42,180 bases of DNA from NCBI GenBank assembly GCA_029062895.1, contig JAIDPF010000063.1, positions 1-42,180 of the forward strand, written 5' to 3'. Shown here one piece after another: positions 460 through 38,342 of this stretch. How positions within the stretch are numbered: position 1 is the stretch's first letter; every line of letters begins with the position of its first letter. A program made the translations under genes and the position numbers. The notes beneath the pieces are model-generated. The model had not been told where the DNA came from and ran no database searches. It saw only the letters and a program-made list of their open reading frames with translations. The DNA is from Lachnospiraceae bacterium. GTDB taxonomy: Bacteria; Bacillota; Clostridia; Lachnospirales; Lachnospiraceae.

Positions 460-793
460 GGGCTTGAAAGGTTTCGACGGGGTGTCTTAAGTTGAAGAAG
501 CTATCCGCAGGTGATGCGTCAAATCACAAATTAAAAATAAACGCTGAAGACAATTTAGCATACGCTGCCTAAGGGCAGCTGTCCTCCCTAATGCACCTAC
601 ACATTAGGAACAGGGCATCGGACTTGTAGGAAACGTGCATGCTAAGCTTTGCGCATGTAGCAGATCCATGAAGCTACTAAAACCGTAACGGTGTCTATGA
701 CGGGACGGCAGAGGGAATGTTAATCCACAGACTATGATAGTAGAAGAGCGATGGCGGATATTTCGGACGCGGGTTCAAATCCCGCCAGGTCCA
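460..793 (+). ncRNA. ssrA: transfer-messenger RNA (tmRNA, ssrA)
   Basis: tmRNA is both tRNA and mRNA: it is charged with alanine, enters stalled ribosomes with SmpB and encodes a degradation tag. The 5' end GGGCTTG (460-466) pairs over 7 bp, with two G-U pairs, with CAGGTCC (786-792). The T arm is a perfect 5-bp stem around TTCAAAT (769-785), and the tRNA-like 5' part carries GGTTTCGACGGGG. The tag frame ends AAC GCT GAA GAC AAT TTA and on to the TAA at 569-571, giving a tag ending NAEDNLAYAA, with the usual hydrophobic Ala-Ala C-terminus. A793 is the discriminator base. CCA is not encoded (CTT follows), so it must be added enzymatically. The exact resume codon was not determined. Confidence 0.96.
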
Positions 794-794
794 C

Positions 795-1601
795 TTACTG
801 CAAAAGGAAGCGCAAGATGCGTTGATCAAAGTCAACGGCTTCTTCATATGCAGCATGACCAAGGTCGTTATAAATGAAACATTCACTATTTTTAATTCTA
901 TCTGCCAATTCTAACGATGCGGTTTTTCCAACGATTTTGTCACATGCTCCGCCTATGATTAAGGTAGGGCACAAGATCTTATCCAACTCTAAATAGGCAT
1001 TGTGGTGAAGACAGGAATCTGCCTGAATAAGAAAGCGCTTAAAATCTTTTGGCTTTCCTATGTGTTCCAAAAGCGGAATAAGATATTTGTATCTTTTTAA
1101 GTATTTTTCCGAATAGGATTTTTCTGCCGTATCCACCATCAGAGACTTGTAGTCTCCATGCTCAGCCATAGAGATCCAATTACTTACGCTTTCTTGTATG
1201 ACTTCGTTTTGTTTGGCAAGCGTAACGGCCAATACCAGTTTTTTGACCAGTTCGGGGTGATCAATGGCAAGATACTGGGCGATCATTCCACCTTGGGATA
1301 CCCCCAGGACATTTGCGTTGGCAATACCAAGATGTTTCATTGCTTTTGCCTGATCCGCAGCCATATCCCGCGTAGTGTAACTTTCCGGAAACTCATTTTT
1401 CCGGCTGAAAACATATACAGTATAATCCCTTGCATATGCTTTGTAAGTCATAGAAAGAGGTAAGGCCATGCCTTTTACCGTTGTTAACCCGTCTCCCAAT
1501 CCGGGAAGCATGATCAGGACGTTATCGCCTTTGCCGAAAGAAACATAGTTCATATCTGTGCCGTCAACTTGGACGTTCCCATTTTTTGCATGAAAAAGCA
1601 T
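795..1601 (-). CDS. alpha/beta hydrolase
   Basis: A 268-residue alpha/beta-hydrolase-fold enzyme of unknown substrate, probably cytoplasmic because no signal peptide is seen. The nucleophile elbow is GVSQG with Ser102, an oxyanion-type stretch MLPGLGDG lies near residues 31-38, and the likely catalytic acid and base are Asp221 (GGACDKIVG) and His249 (DLGHAAYE). The start is an ATG with GGAG just upstream on the minus strand. It lies 13 bp downstream of the TetR-type gene and is probably co-transcribed with it. Oddly, its TAA stop begins one base beyond the convergent tmRNA gene and no terminator is visible, so read-through would produce antisense to ssrA. Specific activity (esterase, peptidase, lactonase) cannot be told. 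Confidence 0.88.
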   Translation of the reverse strand: MLFHAKNGNVQVDGTDMNYVSFGKGDNVLIMLPGLGDGLTTVKGMALPLSMTYKAYARDYTVYVFSRKNEFPESYTTRDMAADQAKAMKHLGIANANVLGVSQGGMIAQYLAIDHPELVKKLVLAVTLAKQNEVIQESVSNWISMAEHGDYKSLMVDTAEKSYSEKYLKRYKYLIPLLEHIGKPKDFKRFLIQADSCLHHNAYLELDKILCPTLIIGGACDKIVGKTASLELADRIKNSECFIYNDLGHAAYEEAVDFDQRILRFLLQ

Positions 1602-2440: not shown

Positions 2441-4288
2441 TTGAAGCGTAGTCCAAGAGAAAAATTTCAATATAAAATAGATAATATTATGTCAAAGGGA
2501 ACGGTCTCTCTGGTCAAGATTCTGTTCTGGCTGACGCTGCTGGTGGCAGTAGTGGTTGGCGCTCTGGTTACCATATTCGGCACAGAGACCGGTATTGGGC
2601 ATCAGACGTGGAACGCCATCATGCACGCACTGGATCCGGGAGTGCTTTCCGGTGCCCCGGAAGACAGCAGCATTGCCTATCTGATCGGTATGTCGGTACT
2701 TACCCTGTATGGCGTGCTGGTGATGAGTATTTTGATCGGTATTATTTCCGCCGGTATAGAGGAAAAACTAAATCAGCTGAGAAAAGGATTTTCCAAGATC
2801 ATAGAGGAAAACCATGTGGTCATACTCGGATTTAATGATAATATTTACACGCTGTTATCAGAGTTGATCGAAGCAAACAGCAACCATAAGGATGGCTGTA
2901 TTGTAGTCGTGGGAACGGAAGAAAAAGAGGATATGGAAAAAATGATCCATGATAAGTTTCCTGATACGAGGACAACGAGGATCATCTGCCGAAGCGGTTC
3001 CTTGAGCGATCAGCATCTGTATGAGCAGTGTTCCATGGAAACCAGCAAGTGTGTTATCATCAATGAATATGATGATGCTTCTGTTATTAAGATCATCCTG
3101 TCTGCCAACAGTTATATGAAGAACCATGAGCTTCTTCATGAGGAACTTTATATGGTTGCCGTGATTCATGATGAGGAGAATGTCGATGCTGCCATGATCG
3201 CGGGAGAAGGCAGGGCGGAGATCATATACGCAAGCAGGGCGATCTCCAGAATTATTGCGCATTCCTGCCGCTGTGCCGGTATCTATCAGGTATTAGTGGA
3301 GCTGTTCGATTATGACGGAGATGAACTTTATTACGAGAGCGTGCCGGAGCTGGCAGGCTGTACCTTTGGAGAAAGTCTTAACAGATTTTCTAAAGAGATT
3401 GTATTTGGTATCTGGCATGATAATAAATCTTACTTGAATCCGCCGATGGATATGGTGATTGAAAAGGAGGACAAGCTGATTCTTTTGGAAGAAGACGACG
3501 GTGCTTTTCGGGTAAATGAGCCCGCAGAGCTGGTGAAGAAAGAACAGATCGTTGAACACGATACAAAGATGAAGCGGGAGCAGGAGAAGATCCTGATGCT
3601 TGGTATCAATGAAAAGATGGAGGGGATTCTGGAGGAGTATGATAAATTTGTAAAAAAAGGCTCCGAGATCATTATCGTTTGTATCGAAGAACTTCCATTT
3701 GCACTGGATCAATTTGAAAACTTACAGATCACACATATTCGGGAAAAAGAGACGAACCGGAAAGTATTGGAGCAGGTTGTCACAGATAACATTAAGAAGA
3801 TTCTGATTTTAAATGATGATACGGAGAATGCGGAGAAGTCGGATGCAGATACGTTACTGCAGCTGATCTTCCTGAAGGATATTGCCATCAAGAAGAATCT
3901 TGATTTTTCCATTACAAGCGAGTTGATGAAGAGTGGGAACCAGCGGTTGGCTTCCCAGATCAGAGAAGAGGATTTTATCATCGGCAGCAACATTATCAAT
4001 CTGATCATGACGCAGGTAAGCGAGAACAGAGAACTGGCGAACGTCTTTGCGGAACTGTTGCAGGAAGAGGGCTCTGAGATCTACTTCAGACCTGCGGGAG
4101 ATTATGTAAAAATGGGAGAACCGGTAAACTTCTACACCGTATCAGCAAGCGCTGCGCTTAAGAGTGAAGTTGCAGTCGGATATCGTAAGGAGAACGGCCA
4201 TGGGTTTGATGTGATCACAAATCCCAAAAAAGAAGAGGAAGTGGTCTATGCTGCAGGTGATTATATCATCGTGCTGGCGGAAGACTGA
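2441..4288 (+). CDS. CASTOR/POLLUX-like ion channel with RCK-type NAD-binding domains
   Basis: A 615-residue membrane protein. Transmembrane helix 1 covers about residues 24-48, a pore-like re-entrant stretch lies at about 53-72, and helix 2 at about 79-104. Directly after helix 2 comes GIEEKLNQLRKGFSKIIEEN followed by HVVILGFNDN, the arrangement seen in plant CASTOR/POLLUX/SYM8 channels (helix, LRKG linker, ILGW-type Rossmann start). A second regulatory half begins near ILMLGINEKMEG. The family conducts cations (K+ or Ca2+ in plants); the ion is not known here. Translation probably starts at TTG 2441, preceded by a GGGGGG ribosome binding site; the next ATG in frame is 16 codons later. The gene ends at a bidirectional terminator shared with the acyl-CoA ligase. 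Confidence 0.85.
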   Translation: MKRSPREKFQYKIDNIMSKGTVSLVKILFWLTLLVAVVVGALVTIFGTETGIGHQTWNAIMHALDPGVLSGAPEDSSIAYLIGMSVLTLYGVLVMSILIGIISAGIEEKLNQLRKGFSKIIEENHVVILGFNDNIYTLLSELIEANSNHKDGCIVVVGTEEKEDMEKMIHDKFPDTRTTRIICRSGSLSDQHLYEQCSMETSKCVIINEYDDASVIKIILSANSYMKNHELLHEELYMVAVIHDEENVDAAMIAGEGRAEIIYASRAISRIIAHSCRCAGIYQVLVELFDYDGDELYYESVPELAGCTFGESLNRFSKEIVFGIWHDNKSYLNPPMDMVIEKEDKLILLEEDDGAFRVNEPAELVKKEQIVEHDTKMKREQEKILMLGINEKMEGILEEYDKFVKKGSEIIIVCIEELPFALDQFENLQITHIREKETNRKVLEQVVTDNIKKILILNDDTENAEKSDADTLLQLIFLKDIAIKKNLDFSITSELMKSGNQRLASQIREEDFIIGSNIINLIMTQVSENRELANVFAELLQEEGSEIYFRPAGDYVKMGEPVNFYTVSASAALKSEVAVGYRKENGHGFDVITNPKKEEEVVYAAGDYIIVLAED

Positions 4289-7340: not shown

Positions 7341-7391
7341 GCACATTACAAATCTTTAAATAAGATATTGTTTTGTATGTCGCAGGCGGTA

Positions 7392-7517
7392 AAGGAGTTA
7401 GATTGAAAAATCTTCGATTTTTCATAAACGAATTTATTCGTTTTGCAATTATTGCGCCTACAGCATAGCACTAAAGTGCATTAAAGTTTGCAGGTTACGG
7501 AAAGGCATGGCTATTAG
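7392..7517 (+). repeat. structured intergenic repeat, copy A
   Basis: First of three related elements in this window, lying in the 5' leader of the gene at 7539. It contains hairpin 1 (GAAAAATC-TTC-GATTTTTC, 7405-7423), hairpin 2 (AAACGAAT-TT-ATTCGTTT, 7426-7443) and hairpin 3, whose outer pairing is GCAA (7445-7448) with TTGC (7488-7491). It closes with the tail GGAAAGGCATGGCTATTA. Compared with copy B it carries an extra internal hairpin GCACTAAAGTGC. Copies B and C share the order and most of the sequence but stand in front of unrelated genes. Confidence 0.8.
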
Positions 7518-7538
7518 TTTGAGAAAGGATGATCTACG

Positions 7539-9134
7539 ATGGATGAAAATCAGGTGAATCAGATGGAAATGGGAATGGACTCTCAGACGACATTTGGCAT
7601 GAGCGTTAATGGCGCTTTGGAGACGCCGCCTAAGAAGAAAAAAACAGGGTTTGTGATAGCGGGTATTATTTTTGGGCTTCTTTTGCTGCTTGGGGCGGGC
7701 GCGTTTGGAATGTTGAAGTACAGGGAACAACAGGATATGGATGCCAGCGAGGAAATGATTGCCGCTTTTATGAAAGCGTATGGGCGACTGCATCTTGAAG
7801 ACGCTTATGAAATGTTCCATCCGGATGTCAGGGACGGCGTGATCGATGAGCAGTTGGATGAATATATGATGTCTGGTCTGACTGGTTTGGAACGGTATCT
7901 TGATCTGTATTTTGGCGACATGGAACTGACGTATGAGATCAATAACTCCAAAAGACTTTCAGAAGAGGAATTGGAAGACCTTCTTTCGGAAATAGACGAT
8001 TCCTACGACGCTGATCTGGATATTGCTAAGGTATATGCTTATCAGGTGACAGAGGTTTATTCCGGAGACAATGGAACGCTTAAAGTGCGTGATAATTATT
8101 TTGTGGGAAAAGATGAGGATGACTGGTATATTATTGCGGTCACAACGGATAAAATCATAAAGAATGACGTTTCTTTCTCGATTACGGATTACTTAACAAC
8201 GGAATTGATTGATGAATTTATGGTCTTATATAGTGAAGCGATCGACGAATGTGACAGTGAGAAGATGGAAGATGCATATGGTCTTATGCATCCGGAAATA
8301 AGGGATGTATTTTTAGAGCAGTGGGTGCTCCAAAATGGTTTGGGAGATATGGGAGATTTTGTAGAGCAGAGAAATTCCCTTTATGGAGGTTTTTCATCGG
8401 AATATGAAATTATGGAGATAACTTATCTGAAAGGAAGAGAGTGGAACTCTATTCTCCGTCAAGTAGAAGATTATTTTGGTACAAAGTTTGATTTTGGCAT
8501 GCGTGGCGTATGGCAATTTGATCTGAAAGAGACTTTTTCGGGAAGCAATGGAACCGTAGTTATGGTGGAAAACTATTTTCTGGGAGAAGAAGATGGTAAG
8601 TGGTACATTATTGATATCAATTCGGAAGAGGTTATTAGCGATACCTTATATGTACAGCCAGTGTATACGGGGGATGAGGGATATGCTTCCGTTGAAGAAG
8701 CGATAGAACATTATATGTATGCATATGAAGATTTTGATGTAGAGGAAGCTTTTATGGCTTTTCATCCCGTAATCAGGGAGTATGCATTGGCAAAAGCTTG
8801 TTACAACGATGGTGTGGACGATGCGGAAGAATACAATGAGATGATAAATTCCCTTTTTGGAGGTAGTTTAACGGTTACTTATACGATTACTGCAAAGGAG
8901 GCACTTTCTGAAAGTGAACTGGAAGCCTTTTCGTATCTCCTCTGGGGTAGCGAGGTGCCGCCCGCGAATATTTCGGATGCTTGCCTGTGTCTGCTGGAGG
9001 AGCATTACGAAGGAGGCGGTGCTACGCTCGACACAGAAGAACTGATCATGGCGGGGAAAGATGGTGGTCAGTGGTTCCTTTATAACTCGACAATCATTCC
9101 GGAAGACTTTGATATAGACGCATTTGATTTTTAA
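7539..9134 (+). CDS. membrane-anchored protein with three copies of an NTF2-like domain
   Basis: A 531-residue protein. The first 36 residues are cytoplasmic and end in PPKKKK, a transmembrane helix follows at about 37-58, and the rest should be outside the cell. The external part holds three diverged copies of one domain, at about residues 73-212, 227-372 and 398-522. Each starts with a helix around EDAYEMFHPDVRD / EDAYGLMHPEIRD / EEAFMAFHPVIRE and the first two end DNYFVGKDEDDWYII / ENYFLGEEDGKWYII; the third ends in a related way. This helix-then-sheet layout suggests an NTF2-like or DUF4878-like fold, which is inference. AAAGG precedes the ATG by 10 bases. No catalytic motif is evident. 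The gene sits behind repeat copy A and ahead of the GH5 gene. Confidence 0.75.
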   Translation: MDENQVNQMEMGMDSQTTFGMSVNGALETPPKKKKTGFVIAGIIFGLLLLLGAGAFGMLKYREQQDMDASEEMIAAFMKAYGRLHLEDAYEMFHPDVRDGVIDEQLDEYMMSGLTGLERYLDLYFGDMELTYEINNSKRLSEEELEDLLSEIDDSYDADLDIAKVYAYQVTEVYSGDNGTLKVRDNYFVGKDEDDWYIIAVTTDKIIKNDVSFSITDYLTTELIDEFMVLYSEAIDECDSEKMEDAYGLMHPEIRDVFLEQWVLQNGLGDMGDFVEQRNSLYGGFSSEYEIMEITYLKGREWNSILRQVEDYFGTKFDFGMRGVWQFDLKETFSGSNGTVVMVENYFLGEEDGKWYIIDINSEEVISDTLYVQPVYTGDEGYASVEEAIEHYMYAYEDFDVEEAFMAFHPVIREYALAKACYNDGVDDAEEYNEMINSLFGGSLTVTYTITAKEALSESELEAFSYLLWGSEVPPANISDACLCLLEEHYEGGGATLDTEELIMAGKDGGQWFLYNSTIIPEDFDIDAFDF

Positions 9135-25816: not shown

Positions 25817-25850
25817 GGCTTACCGTTGTTCCGGATAACCAGATCGTGAG

Positions 25851-25960
25851 AAGGAGAGTAGATTGAAAAATCAAAGAGTTTTTCAAAAACGAATAAATTC
25901 GTTTTGCGAATATTGTGCCTGCGGCCCAAAATTCGCAGGTTAAGGAAAGGTATGGTTATT
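25851..25960 (+). repeat. structured intergenic repeat, copy B
   Basis: Second element, filling most of the gap between mgtE and thyA. Hairpin 1 is imperfect (GAAAAATC / GAGTTTTTC, 25865-25884), hairpin 2 is AAACGAAT-AA-ATTCGTTT (25887-25904), and hairpin 3 pairs GCGAAT (25906-25911) with ATTCGC (25931-25936) around GCC-TGC-GGC. It ends with GGAAAGGTATGGTTATTA immediately before the thyA start. The centre of hairpin 2 differs from copy A (AA versus TT) while the arms are identical. Confidence 0.8.
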
Positions 25961-25967
25961 AATAGAA

Positions 25968-33627: not shown

Positions 33628-33844
33628 TGATGAAAGTGTTTCCAATACTGGATTTGCGTTGCGAAGCAGAAATATATGAGGGGTTATAAAAGGTTCTAAA
33701 TAAAAACTAAATTTTCTATAAGAGAGTGACAAGCTATGGAAATTCAAGTACAATTATAAGGGAAAATTTTGCTTGCTTTTAGTGCGTTTTCAAAGAAGAG
33801 ATATTTTATATTATATTATGGATGAAATAGGAAAGAGACGCAGG

Positions 33845-36139
33845 ATGAAAAAGAGTAACGTTATAACATTGATAACAATCATAGCGGTGATCGCCATAGC
33901 GGGAGTTTTCTTTGGCGTGAATTATCTGTTGGATGCCTATGCAAAATATCAGAGGGCGACGCAGTCAGGCAATCCGGCTGCAGCCGGACAGCAGGCGGTC
34001 AGTCCGGCATATGGATTGATTATGTTGACAATGGATTCACCGGAAGAAAGCGGCGTATGCGGTGAAGATCTGGAATGGTATTATAAAGATGAAGTCCTTG
34101 TCATCACAGGTACGGGAGAAATGAATGAATACATATATTCCGCGGGCAGCGCGCCATGGAATAGTCTGCGGAATCTGATAGGATTGGTTATCCTTGATGA
34201 AGGCGTAAGCAGTATTGGCGGCGCAGCATTTAAGGGGTGTGTAAATATGACAGAGATCGTCTTGCCGTCTTCCCTGACATATATTGACGATAGCGCGTTT
34301 TCCGGTTGCGGCAGTCTGACGCAGATCGAACTGCCGGATGGAGTGTCCGGCATTGGTAAGAGTGCATTTGAGGGGTGCAGCGGATTGAGAACGATCACGC
34401 TGTCGGATGGATTAACGAGCGTCGGCGAGAGCGCGTTTTATGGCTGCAGTGGATTGAGAGAGATTGAACTGCCGGACGGCGTAACAAACATCGGCGAGAG
34501 CGCGTTTAGGGATTGCAGCGGCTTGACAGAGATCACGCTGTCGGATTCCCTGACCAGAATTGAGAAGTGGGCATTTTATGGCTGTAGCGGCATAACAGAG
34601 ATCAGGCTGCCGGATGGCATTACCAGAATTGACGAGAGGACATTTTCCGACTGCGGAGGCCTACAGGAGATTACGATACCGGATAGCGTAACAAGCATCG
34701 GCGAGAGTGCATTTAAGGGATGCGGCAGTTTGACAGAACTCACAATACCGGATAGTGTTACGAGGATCGACAGTTGGGCATTTAGTGACTGCATCGGATT
34801 AACGGAGGTCATGCTTCCGGATTCCATCACCAGAATTGACAAGCGGGTATTTAGCGGCTGTACCGAATTAATTAAGATCACGCTTCCGGATTCTATAATT
34901 AGTATAGGGGAATCCGCGTTTGGCGAATGTATCAATCTGACGGAGATCATGATACCTGATTCTGTGACCATGATTGACAATTTTGCATTTGAGAATTGTG
35001 GCGGCATAACAGAGATCACATTGCCGGCTTCTTTGACAAATATTGGAAAGGGCGCGTTTTACGGTTGCAGCGGTTTGACGGAAATCACGATACCGGATGG
35101 TATAACGAACATTGATGATGAGACATTTAGGAACTGTGGCGGTTTAACAAAGATCACGCTGCCGGACGGCATAACGGGTATTGGTGATGATGCATTCAGA
35201 TTCTGCGGCGGTTTGACGGAGATCACGCTGCCGGACGGTATAACGAGCATTGGTGATGGGACGTTCGGGAGCTGCGGCGGTTTAACGGAGATCACGCTGC
35301 CGGACAGCGTAACGAGTATTGGCAATAAAGCATTTGCGTATTGCTATAGTTTAACGAAAATCACGATACCTGATAATGTAATGAGCATTGGTGATAGCGC
35401 ATTTTCAGGTTGCAGCGGTCTGACGGAAATCACGATACCGGACAGCGTAACGAGTATTGGGTTTTATACATTTGGCTACTGTGATGCTCTGATGGAACTC
35501 GAGCTGCCAGAGGGTATAACAAGTATCGATGATGATGCATTTTATAGTTGCAGCAGTTTGAAAGAAATCAATATACCTGATAGCGTAACGCGCATTGGTG
35601 ATGAGGCATTTAGGGGTTGTAGCAGTCTGACGGAGCTTACGATACCGGATGGGGTCACGCATATTGGTCATCACGCATTCGAAGGTTGCAGCAGTCTAAC
35701 GGAACTTACGATACCGGACAGCGCTATAGCAAGTATTGGTACCGGCGCGCTTGCGGGTTGTAGCTGGCTGACGGAGATCACGATTCCAGACAGCATAACG
35801 CAGGTTGGAAGGCGGGCATTTCAAAACTGCCATCATTTAACGAACATTTCACTGCCGGATACCATTATCAACATTGATGATTATGCATTTTCCGGCTGCT
35901 GGGATTTGACGGAAATCACGATCCCGGATAGTGTAACGGACATCGGCATTGCTGCGTTTCAGGATTGCAGAAATTTAACGGAACTAACGATTCCGGATAG
36001 TGTAATAAGCATCGGCTTTGACGCATTTTCCGGTTGCAGCGATATGACAATTTATTATAGCGGCAATGCACTTGATTCTTATATTGACTGGAATAGCAGT
36101 GAGTGGAGCAGAAAAAATATCGTCTGGGTCAGGAAGTAA
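33845..36139 (+). CDS. BspA-type leucine-rich repeat surface protein
   Basis: A 764-residue protein with an N-terminal membrane helix (about residues 5-28), a linker, and 27 tandem 23-residue repeats of the BspA/TpLRR type (consensus IPDSVTSIGESAFxGCxxLTEIT); the 23rd repeat has 24 residues. Such right-handed LRR domains are displayed on the surface of oral and gut bacteria and bind host or bacterial ligands. There is no LPXTG, choline-binding or other C-terminal anchor, so the N-terminal helix probably holds it. GGAAAG nine bases upstream supports ATG 33845; earlier in-frame starts (33818, TTG 33773) are possible. Many repeats are nearly identical at the DNA level. Confidence 0.92.
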   Translation: MKKSNVITLITIIAVIAIAGVFFGVNYLLDAYAKYQRATQSGNPAAAGQQAVSPAYGLIMLTMDSPEESGVCGEDLEWYYKDEVLVITGTGEMNEYIYSAGSAPWNSLRNLIGLVILDEGVSSIGGAAFKGCVNMTEIVLPSSLTYIDDSAFSGCGSLTQIELPDGVSGIGKSAFEGCSGLRTITLSDGLTSVGESAFYGCSGLREIELPDGVTNIGESAFRDCSGLTEITLSDSLTRIEKWAFYGCSGITEIRLPDGITRIDERTFSDCGGLQEITIPDSVTSIGESAFKGCGSLTELTIPDSVTRIDSWAFSDCIGLTEVMLPDSITRIDKRVFSGCTELIKITLPDSIISIGESAFGECINLTEIMIPDSVTMIDNFAFENCGGITEITLPASLTNIGKGAFYGCSGLTEITIPDGITNIDDETFRNCGGLTKITLPDGITGIGDDAFRFCGGLTEITLPDGITSIGDGTFGSCGGLTEITLPDSVTSIGNKAFAYCYSLTKITIPDNVMSIGDSAFSGCSGLTEITIPDSVTSIGFYTFGYCDALMELELPEGITSIDDDAFYSCSSLKEINIPDSVTRIGDEAFRGCSSLTELTIPDGVTHIGHHAFEGCSSLTELTIPDSAIASIGTGALAGCSWLTEITIPDSITQVGRRAFQNCHHLTNISLPDTIINIDDYAFSGCWDLTEITIPDSVTDIGIAAFQDCRNLTELTIPDSVISIGFDAFSGCSDMTIYYSGNALDSYIDWNSSEWSRKNIVWVRK
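34205..36057 (+). repeat. 27 tandem 69-bp coding repeats
   Basis: In-frame units of 69 bp (one of 72 bp) encoding the leucine-rich repeats. Neighbouring units between about 35100 and 35480 share long stretches, for example GAGATCACGCTGCCGGACGG, so recombination could change the copy number without frameshift. Confidence 0.92.
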
Positions 36140-36242
36140 TTTGTTTTGCCAATGGAAATCAAGGATGGAGATTTTTGCGGAAACGCAGGCGGTTTTTTAA
36201 TTGACAGAAATGGAATAGAGTGTTATATTGAATAAAGTAACA

Positions 36243-36405
36243 GATAGAGGTTGCGTTTTTCAAGAGTACTGCATAGGATGTTACAGGGGCAGTTGAGGAT
36301 GCAGGAAAGGGGAAGACGCCGAAGGAGACATGACCTGTTGCGTGCCTTCCTGGGGATACAGTGAATAACTGTATAACTGTCATCTTATAAAGATGGGGCG
36401 CTATC
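36243..36405 (+). promoter_or_regulatory. lysine riboswitch (L-box)
   Basis: The leader of dapA carries the conserved L-box core in order: GATAGAGGTTGCG (36243-36255), CAAGAGTA, GAAAGGGGAAGACGCCGAAG, ACTGTCATC-TTATAAA-GATGGGGCGCTATC. P1 pairs GATAG (36243-36247) with CTATC (36401-36405). Lysine binding stabilises P1 and lets the downstream terminator form, so dapA should be repressed by lysine. The match to the B. subtilis lysC L-box layout is close, judged from memory of that sequence. Confidence 0.93.
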
Positions 36406-36421
36406 GGATATGTGCGAATTA

Positions 36422-37443: not shown

Positions 37444-37445
37444 AC

Positions 37446-37533
37446 AAACGAATTTATTTGTTTTGCGAATATTGTGCCTACGGCATAAAGTGCATTAAAA
37501 TTCGCAGATTGTTAGAAAGGTAAGGATATTAAA
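37446..37533 (+). repeat. structured intergenic repeat, copy C
   Basis: Third element, directly upstream of dapB. Hairpin 2 is AAACGAAT-TT-ATTTGTTT (37446-37463), where one C-G pair of the other copies is a G-U pair. Hairpin 3 pairs GCGAAT (37465-37470) with ATTCGC (37500-37505) around TGCC-TAC-GGCA. The tail is GAAAGGTAAGGATATTA followed by AAATG of dapB, so the ATG present in the tails of copies A and B is TAA-like here. Confidence 0.78.
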
Positions 37534-38324: not shown

Positions 38325-38342
38325 GGAAAGGCATGGTTATTA
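38325..38342 (+). repeat. tail-only relic of the intergenic repeat (copy D)
   Basis: GGAAAGGCATGGTTATTA in front of fbp matches the 3' tail of copies A and B (one or no differences) and again supplies the ribosome binding site. The hairpin part is missing. Confidence 0.6.

What the first reader, a model, noticed from the sequence alone, without database searches (positions are those of the whole stretch)
7392..7517. Structured intergenic repeat family placed in front of unrelated genes (also 25851-25960 and 37446-37533)
Three elements share order and sequence: an A/T hairpin, hairpin AAACGAAT-NN-ATTCGTTT, a larger hairpin closed by GCGAAT/ATTCGC, then a tail with GAAAGG. They stand directly before an anchored triple-domain protein, thyA and dapB. 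Differences preserve pairing: the hairpin 2 centre changes TT to AA with constant arms, one C-G becomes G-U in copy C, hairpin 3 is GCAA/TTGC in copy A and GCGAAT/ATTCGC in B and C, and hairpin 1 is replaced by an unrelated strong hairpin in C. A loop segment is present in A and C but absent in B. Either this is a mobile small repeat that inserts before start codons, or a cis-acting RNA family controlling several genes.
Basis: partly seen in the sequence, partly recalled or inferred. Interest (0 to 1): 0.75.

Follow-up and report, generated by a model that had tools for sequence, protein, structure and literature searches.

The report
Mobile repeats inserted at gene starts
The three look-alike elements belong to a family of about 100 short, hairpin-rich mobile DNA repeats that tend to sit between a gene's ribosome-binding site and its start codon and bring a replacement ribosome-binding site, which would let them spread without silencing the gene they land in.

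Summary
The host genome holds 99 matches (E<=0.1) to a covariance model of the repeat. 4 of 34 congeners carry it; so do 8 other genomes of the 397 sampled in the family, each in another genus. It is modular: a left hairpin, an optional hairpin 2, a TTGTGCCTGCGG...TTCGCAGG hairpin with an optional inner hairpin, and a tail GGAAAGGCATGGTTATTA that is itself a Shine-Dalgarno (SD) site. Most copies stand in sense before a gene; the tail SD is 13-15 nt from the start in 110 of 189 copies. At 18 of 32 comparable sites at least one congener lacks the element, mostly with an SD of its own. In other genera 25 of 29 left flanks still hold an SD-like tetramer 5-12 nt upstream. So it is a mobile repeat that enters the SD-to-start spacer and supplies an SD, not a regulon marker. 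Helices covary across genera, though concerted evolution may contribute. There are no terminal inverted repeats, no Rfam match and no tracking Y1 transposase. The closest known kind is the mycobacterial MIRU, also inserted at start codons but by translational coupling. The mobilising enzyme is unknown.

The parts
7391..7397 (+). SD-like AAAGGAG left of copy A (left flank)
   Evidence: sequence; left-flank survey
7401..7517 (+). element copy A: left hairpin GATTG..., hairpin 2, core with inner hairpin, SD tail; before the 531-aa protein at 7539 (no Pfam match)
   Evidence: (model match 7425-7517, 101.8 bits)
7405..7423 (+). left hairpin (H1) of copy A
   Evidence: read from the sequence; not in the minimum-energy fold of the stretch used
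7426..7443 (+). hairpin 2 (H2) of copy A
7445..7491 (+). hairpin 3 (GCAA/TTGC) of copy A with inner hairpin GCAC/GTGC 7468-7479
   Evidence: sequence; family pair counts
7499..7505 (+). tail SD GGAAAGG of copy A (a further SD-like AGAAAGGA lies at 7522-7529, nearer the start)
25849..25856 (+). SD-like AGAAGGAG left of copy B
25861..25961 (+). element copy B before thyA (25968)
   Evidence: (match 25886-25962, 92.8 bits)
25863..25886 (+). left hairpin (H1) of copy B
25887..25904 (+). hairpin 2 of copy B
25906..25936 (+). hairpin 3 GCGAAT/ATTCGC of copy B
25944..25950 (+). tail SD GGAAAGG of copy B
37446..37532 (+). element copy C (no left hairpin) before dapB (37534); empty site in G008 and G016
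   Evidence: (match 37445-37532, 89.0 bits)
37446..37463 (+). hairpin 2 of copy C (one G-U)
37465..37505 (+). hairpin 3 GCGAAT/ATTCGC of copy C
37514..37520 (+). tail SD AGAAAGG of copy C
38325..38342 (+). tail-only GGAAAGGCATGGTTATTA before fbp (ATG 38344); congener G016 has two tandem elements here

Best explanation
It is a non-autonomous, modular mobile repeat of roughly 75-135 nt whose usual integration site is a translation start region. It enters the short spacer between a gene's native SD and its start codon, in sense, mostly after a TA. Its right end is a ready-made SD (GGAAAGG) with a spacer, so the host gene keeps a ribosome-binding site, most often 13 nt from its start, while the native SD is left upstream. 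Shown: presence/absence at orthologous sites, tandem and truncated copies, usual position and orientation, the SD-like tail, SD-like left flanks in other genera. Inferred: that absence is the older state at most sites; that the tail drives translation; that the displaced SD decays; that the hairpins are the substrate (single-stranded DNA or RNA) of an unidentified enzyme; that target choice and not only selection explains the start-site preference.
For: Copies: 99 matches at E<=0.1 in the host genome. Distribution: 5 of 35 genomes of the genus, host included, and 9 of 397 sampled genomes of the family, host included, in 9 of 334 genera. Mobility: 40 site-by-genome comparisons at 32 sites gave 19 without element, 2 tail only, 13 with element, 5 truncated, 1 masked; 18 of 32 sites had at least one congener lacking it. 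An SD stands before the start in 15 of the 19 element-free sites by my reading (18 of 19 by a lenient pattern). Outgroup congeners read at glmM (6) and dapB (7) have no element. G008 has two tandem copies where the host has one. Position: 83 of 93 host copies precede an ORF of >=70 aa or one open to the end of the stretch; 80 of 93 have one same-strand gene 75 nt downstream, and 48 of 58 copies in 1.04 Mb of three congeners do. SD-to-start distance is 13 nt in 86 of 189 copies and 13-15 nt in 110. SD-like left flank: 25 of 29 in other genera against 5 and 4 of 29 in shifted controls. TA precedes 83 of 113 copies. Helices covary: 12 of 20 pairs change on both sides, 64 cells against 17.3 shuffled, 0 of 500.
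Against: No mobilising enzyme was found; Y1 transposases (PF01797) do not track the element. No direct test of translation was possible. Not every copy is at a start: of 93 host copies 10 have no good ORF in reach, and at least six copies (C6:236, C64:34881, C99:5982, C112:18158, C5:5739, C70:2864) stand before no same-strand gene but face an opposite-strand one; 8 of the 10 are also core-pattern hits. In the host clade SD-like left flanks are much less clear (30 of 70 against 19 and 13 in controls). Copy A's start has its own second SD. Folding does not show the tail SD to be unusually open: mean unpaired probability 0.57 against 0.53 behind a shuffled 5' part. The model contains the tail, so full-model searches favour copies with a tail. 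No target-site duplication was resolved.
Confidence: 0.72

Rival explanations
1. Cis-regulatory RNA: a protein- or ligand-binding leader that controls a dispersed regulon.
For: Conserved order of hairpins, covariation across genera, usual place in the 5' leader in sense; mnmA carries it in the host, in two congeners and in genus G321.
Against: Host genes are unrelated and mostly different between genera; orthologous genes in close species lack it at 18 of 32 sites; modules are exchanged or lost at the same site; tail-only sites exist; no Rfam match.
Confidence: 0.1
2. Random insertion filtered by selection: the element inserts anywhere at TA, and mainly insertions that happen to restore an SD next to a start codon survive.
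For: TA precedes 83 of 113 copies, as at the ends of other small repeats; insertions inside genes would be lost; at least six host copies stand before no same-strand gene.
Against: Intergenic insertions away from a start, or antisense, should be tolerated and common, yet they are a small minority here: 80 of 93 and 48 of 58 copies face a same-strand gene at once, and the core-only search, which has no tail bias, added only 2 copies beyond the model's; the exact 13-nt distance in 86 of 189 copies is sharper than tolerance seems to require.
Confidence: 0.22
3. MIRU-like coupling: the native SD drives a GTG/TTG at the element's left end, a small ORF runs through the element and stops at, or fuses to, the host gene, whose start is reached by re-initiation. 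This could act together with the tail SD.
For: GTG or TTG at the left end sits behind an SD-like flank in other genera; the ORF reaches the host start region in 30 of 47 host-clade and 16 of 26 other-genus copies against 19.6 and 8.2 expected after shuffling.
Against: 17 of 47 and 10 of 26 copies have early stops; the +2 frame is open almost as often in the host clade (28 of 47), though not in other genera (5 of 26); copies without a left hairpin have no such start.
Confidence: 0.3
4. Copies spread mainly by recombination between existing leaders (gene conversion of 5' ends), not by transposition.
For: Module exchange at orthologous sites; a tandem copy in G008 whose tail matches the local tail and not the family consensus.
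Against: The native leaders read at empty sites share little with the element, so first arrival needs another mechanism; presence in distant genera.
Confidence: 0.12

Closest known systems
MIRU (mycobacterial interspersed repetitive units)
   Same: Short repeat that appears mobile, inserts at start codons and is thought to have little impact on the gene (one passage read in PMC12548453)
   Different: MIRU relies on an ORF coupled to the gene with -4 nt spacing; here the constant feature is an SD-bearing tail plus covarying hairpins; different phylum; sequence relation not tested
BOX, RUP and SPRITE repeats of Streptococcus pneumoniae
   Same: Small, modular (BOX), predicted stem-loops, 125/110/30 copies, insert into one another (passages of PMC3049150)
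   Different: Those are overrepresented between convergent genes, and BOX and RUP have TIR and TSD; this one sits mostly before genes in sense and has no TIR
ERIC, RUP and Correia MITE-like repeats
   Same: Small dispersed repeats with TA at the ends (table passage of PMC2229807)
   Different: Those have terminal inverted repeats; none here
REP/REPIN with RAYT (Y1) transposase
   Same: Hairpin repeats dispersed in one genome (general knowledge)
   Different: Y1 transposase does not track the element; a GTAG-type tag was not tested

Membership tests
MIRU-like start-site repeat | Inserts at start codons | tested here: met
   for most copies, not all:
MIRU-like start-site repeat | Internal ORF coupled to the host gene | tested here: inconclusive
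   30 of 47 and 16 of 26 against 19.6 and 8.2 expected; 17 and 10 early stops
MIRU | Sequence homology to mycobacterial MIRU | not tested
   no MIRU sequence was fetched
MITE | Terminal inverted repeats | tested here: not met
   best 10-mer identity 4.14 against 4.36 shuffled, n=113
MITE | Target-site duplication | tested here: inconclusive
   TA on the left in 83 of 113; the tail also ends in TA, so a TA duplication cannot be told from the element's own end
REP/REPIN | Associated RAYT/Y1 transposase | tested here: not met
   PF01797 in 3 of 5 carriers and 12 of 30 non-carriers; absent from carriers G008 and G012, which are 88% and 72% complete; in G016 only pieces with stops
REP/REPIN | GTAG/CGTC tag | not tested
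   no tag search was made
Known structured RNA (Rfam) | Match to a family at or above gathering score | tested here: not met
   only tmRNA and the lysine riboswitch in the window; on six loci three weak matches, all well below gathering score
Cis-regulatory RNA | Kept in front of orthologous genes | tested here: not met
   18 of 32 sites lack it in at least one close species
Cis-regulatory RNA | Helices supported by two-sided changes | tested here: met
   12 of 20 pairs, 41 sequences; concerted evolution not excluded

The most novel reading that the evidence does not exclude
An integration system of an unknown kind recognises bacterial translation-initiation regions (SD plus TA spacer) and inserts a structured single-strand cassette there, and this cassette moves between genera of Lachnospiraceae, also riding on larger mobile elements (one copy sits before a serine-recombinase gene on a viral-collection contig). 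Native SDs and start codons would then be an attachment site in their own right.
Probability: 0.35. Interest if true: 0.88.

Novelty: new variant of a known kind. Interest (0 to 1): 0.72.

Why it matters
It suggests a second way for small mobile DNA to live inside the most constrained part of a gene: replace the ribosome-binding site that the insertion displaces. Some 80 genes of one species, among them thyA, dapB and (by recognition) adk, glmM, rimM and mnmA, have leaders delivered this way. That bears on gene-start annotation, on how 5' leaders evolve, and on what enzyme could target an SD. It also warns that covarying 5' leader structures can belong to a transposon-like element and not to a regulator.

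Tried and rejected
Alternative pairing CCTGCG/CGCAGG, which would make a switch with hairpin 3: no covariation above shuffles. Rfam at gathering score and at loose E-values: nothing at or above a gathering score on the element. Y1 (RAYT/IS200) transposase as driver: no correlation. Element in plasmids: no match. In phages: one weak partial match to an unannotated scaffold. Viral contigs: the tail and one left-hairpin pattern hit the same single contig, three other patterns hit none. Idea that the hairpins keep the SD open: not supported. Reading the G008 rimM site as a clean empty site: rejected; it keeps GATT and ATTA end pieces and looks like an internal deletion, though one search counts it among the 19 without element. 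Claim that no copy lies away from a start: rejected on recheck. Prior description: none seen in the listings of nine answered library searches, which cover open-licence papers only.

Rows dropped: the 93 best-scoring of the 99 host matches were read and counted; of the other six, two (C4:11211 and C80:75489, loci L201 and L199) were looked at and four were fetched but not read. A2 uses 15 of the 23 A1 copies and 26 of the 38 other-genus copies (those with hairpin 2 by eye; L427 left out). One search scored only 10 candidates per genome and 150 of 1893, so counts are lower bounds. The ORF caller is crude: it misses thyA itself (copy B counted as 'none') and misplaces the gene after C33:40142. 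One search used a wrong stretch of L442 and is ignored.

Full report
WHAT IS THERE. The three copies are real. Copy A is 7401-7517, copy B 25861-25961, copy C 37446-37532. Their common order is a left hairpin (H1, absent in C), hairpin 2 (H2), a larger hairpin 3 (H3) around TTGTGCCTGCGG with an optional inner hairpin, and a tail ending GGAAAGG-CATGGTTATTA. The strong hairpin before copy C lies after the end of dapA and is present in congeners without the element.

HOW MANY. The hairpin-2 palindrome occurs at 21 host sites with at most one mismatch, against none for the reversed pattern; the wider pattern gives 29 forward and 32 reverse against 3 and 4. A covariance model from 23 copies (A1) finds 99 matches at E<=0.1 in the 3.07-Mb host genome; I read 93. 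The core pattern alone gives 81 places against 2 for the control: 74 lie in model matches, 2 are further copies by eye, 5 look like chance matches.

WHERE ELSE. 5 of 35 held genomes of the genus are positive, host included; 30 are not. By contig number, length or position, G008, G022, G016 and G012 fit the uncultured Lachnospiraceae MAGs UBA7481, UBA7480, SRR14411253_bin.14 and SRR14411266_bin.2 (inference), which is also why I call the family Lachnospiraceae. In the wider family 9 of 397 sampled genomes are positive, in 9 of 334 genera, so 8 are outside the host genus. All 38 copies listed for those eight were read. They keep the architecture with different letters, e.g. H2 AAAGCGAAC/GTTCGCTTT in G390, AGAACCAAC/GTTGGTTCT in G253.

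POSITION. 83 of 93 host copies are followed by an ORF of >=70 aa or one open to the stretch end. With a crude gene caller 80 of 93 have one same-strand gene 75 nt downstream, 1 overlapping genes, 3 an opposite-strand gene, 9 none; two of the last twelve are caller errors (thyA itself and C33:40142). Six copies (C6:236, C64:34881, C99:5982, C112:18158, C5:5739, C70:2864) stand before no same-strand gene but face an opposite-strand one, and several others run into a second repeat before the next gene. In 1.04 Mb from three congeners there are 58 copies: 48 have a same-strand gene 75 nt downstream, 4 an opposite-strand one, 3 none, 3 lie at an edge. Over 189 copies the last G of the tail SD is 13 nt before the start in 86, 14 in 16, 15 in 8; 12 had no recognisable tail SD, 13 no start, the rest other distances. 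Window copy A is an exception: its host start (7539) lies 21 nt past the element and has a second SD. The genes are unrelated: thyA and dapB, and by recognition of their N-termini adk, rimM, glmM, mnmA, fabG, a LacI-type regulator (recalled names, not family searches).

MOBILITY. 40 orthologous site-by-genome comparisons over 32 host sites gave 19 without element, 2 with only the tail, 13 with element, 5 truncated, 1 masked; at 18 of 32 sites at least one congener lacks it. In 15 of the 19 by my reading an SD stands directly before the start (18 of 19 by a lenient pattern): dapB in G008 and G016; GGAGGAAAATATATTATG; GGAGGCTAATATTAATATG; AAAGGATATAGATGG. At the last two the filled site keeps an SD and then runs into the element. 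One of the 19 (rimM in G008) looks like a deletion of the element, and two hold another repeat instead (glmM in G008, C64:31113 in G016). The outgroup congeners shown at glmM and dapB lack the element, so absence looks ancestral there; elsewhere the direction is inferred. Further marks of mobility and decay: two tandem copies in G008 where the host has one, two tandem copies before fbp in G016 where the host has a bare tail, 5'-truncated copies, and exchange of left, H2 and inner modules between orthologous sites.

TARGET. In other genera 25 of 29 left flanks have an SD-like tetramer in the last 14 nt, against 5 and 4 of 29 in shifted controls, 20 of the 25 starting 5-9 nt before the element; in the host clade 30 of 70 against 19 and 13. 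TA precedes 83 of 113 copies. So, clearly in other genera and less clearly in the host clade, the element lies between a native SD and a start codon and carries another SD at its right end. The weaker host-clade signal would fit decay of displaced SDs, as at C35:24269 (AAGGAGGA in G008, AGAGATGA in the host), but this was not tested across sites.

STRUCTURE. Across 41 copies of six genera 92.7% of cells pair, 12 of 20 pairs change on both sides, 64 cells against 17.3 in shuffles, 0 of 500; slid controls fall to at most 46% paired. RNAalifold on the same alignment finds H2 and H3 by itself, not the inner hairpin. In the first host set 5 of 15 pairs and 18 cells changed on both sides. An alternative switch pairing has no support. 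Because copies recombine and arms are near-perfect inverted repeats, some two-sided change may be concerted evolution; the different arms in different genera make that unlikely as the whole story. Folds are clear for copy B (z -2.54), weak for C (z -1.05) and absent for A (z 0.50, stretch cut inside H1). The hairpins do not make the tail SD measurably more open.

MECHANISM. Most likely (0.72; lowered from 0.74 on recheck because six copies stand before no same-strand gene, and the selection rival raised from 0.20 to 0.22): a mobile repeat that limits its own damage by supplying an SD. Possibly in addition, MIRU-like coupling: the left end supplies a GTG or TTG behind the native SD, and the reading frame reaches the host start region in 30 of 47 and 16 of 26 copies against 19.6 and 8.2 expected, but 17 and 10 copies stop early and the +2 frame is open in 28 of 47 in the host clade (5 of 26 elsewhere). 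The enzyme is unknown. There are no inverted ends, and the Y1 transposase family does not track the element: 3 of 5 carriers, 12 of 30 non-carriers. One copy precedes a serine recombinase gene (Resolvase and Recombinase domains) on an IMG/VR contig, a plausible route between genera.

KNOWN KINDS. MIRUs are described as apparently mobile units that insert at start codons, with an internal ORF coupled to the gene, which likely keeps the impact on expression small (one passage in PMC12548453; the 1997 original was seen only as a reference there). BOX, RUP and SPRITE are overrepresented between convergent genes, and BOX and RUP have TIR and TSD (passages of PMC3049150). TA termini are common in small repeats (table passage of PMC2229807). 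PMC2267715 was seen in passages only. No paper describing this repeat turned up in the listings. I therefore file it as a new variant of start-site mobile repeats, not as a MIRU, MITE or REP.

Noticed in passing
host genome, 20 sites, loci L384-L403: A second hairpin repeat family (GCAGTAAAACTGCTCTGACATGG, often followed by AGGATTA): 20 sites with <=2 mismatches against 0 in the control. Several related copies in congeners stand just before start codons and are joined to or nested with the first family. The 20 host sites were not read.
   Followed up: partly
C81:9653, C81:10577, C102:14938 (L148, L152): A GTGAGAAGAACTTCTAA...CTCACAC hairpin serves as an alternative left module of the same element.
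   Followed up: partly
window 38325-38342: Perfect tail without the rest before fbp; G016 has two tandem elements there, G008 and G022 another hairpin repeat running into masked bases.
   Followed up: yes
L442, tail at 3381-3398 (-): A full element between an SD-like GGAGAGGAAA and the start of a serine recombinase gene on a viral-collection contig.
   Followed up: partly
mnmA (recalled name): C80:33893 (host), L323 and L347 (congeners), L427 (genus G321): The same gene carries the element in two genera (about 61% protein identity): shared old insertion or hot spot.
   Followed up: no
C6:236, C64:34881, C99:5982, C112:18158, C5:5739, C70:2864 (host genome): Copies that stand before no same-strand gene and face an opposite-strand one; they may have landed off target or have lost their gene.
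   Followed up: partly
L207 (G008), before glmM: A different long inverted repeat (TTTGAAAATATATGTTCC...) looks like an ordinary MITE; pieces of it recur in the fetched congener DNA.
   Followed up: no
window 460-796 and 36237-36411: tmRNA and a lysine riboswitch before dapA.
   Followed up: no
window 33773-36139: Large ORF made of many leucine-rich-like repeats (SIGDSAFSGCSGLTEITIPDSVTSIG...), from the ORF list; family not searched.
   Followed up: no
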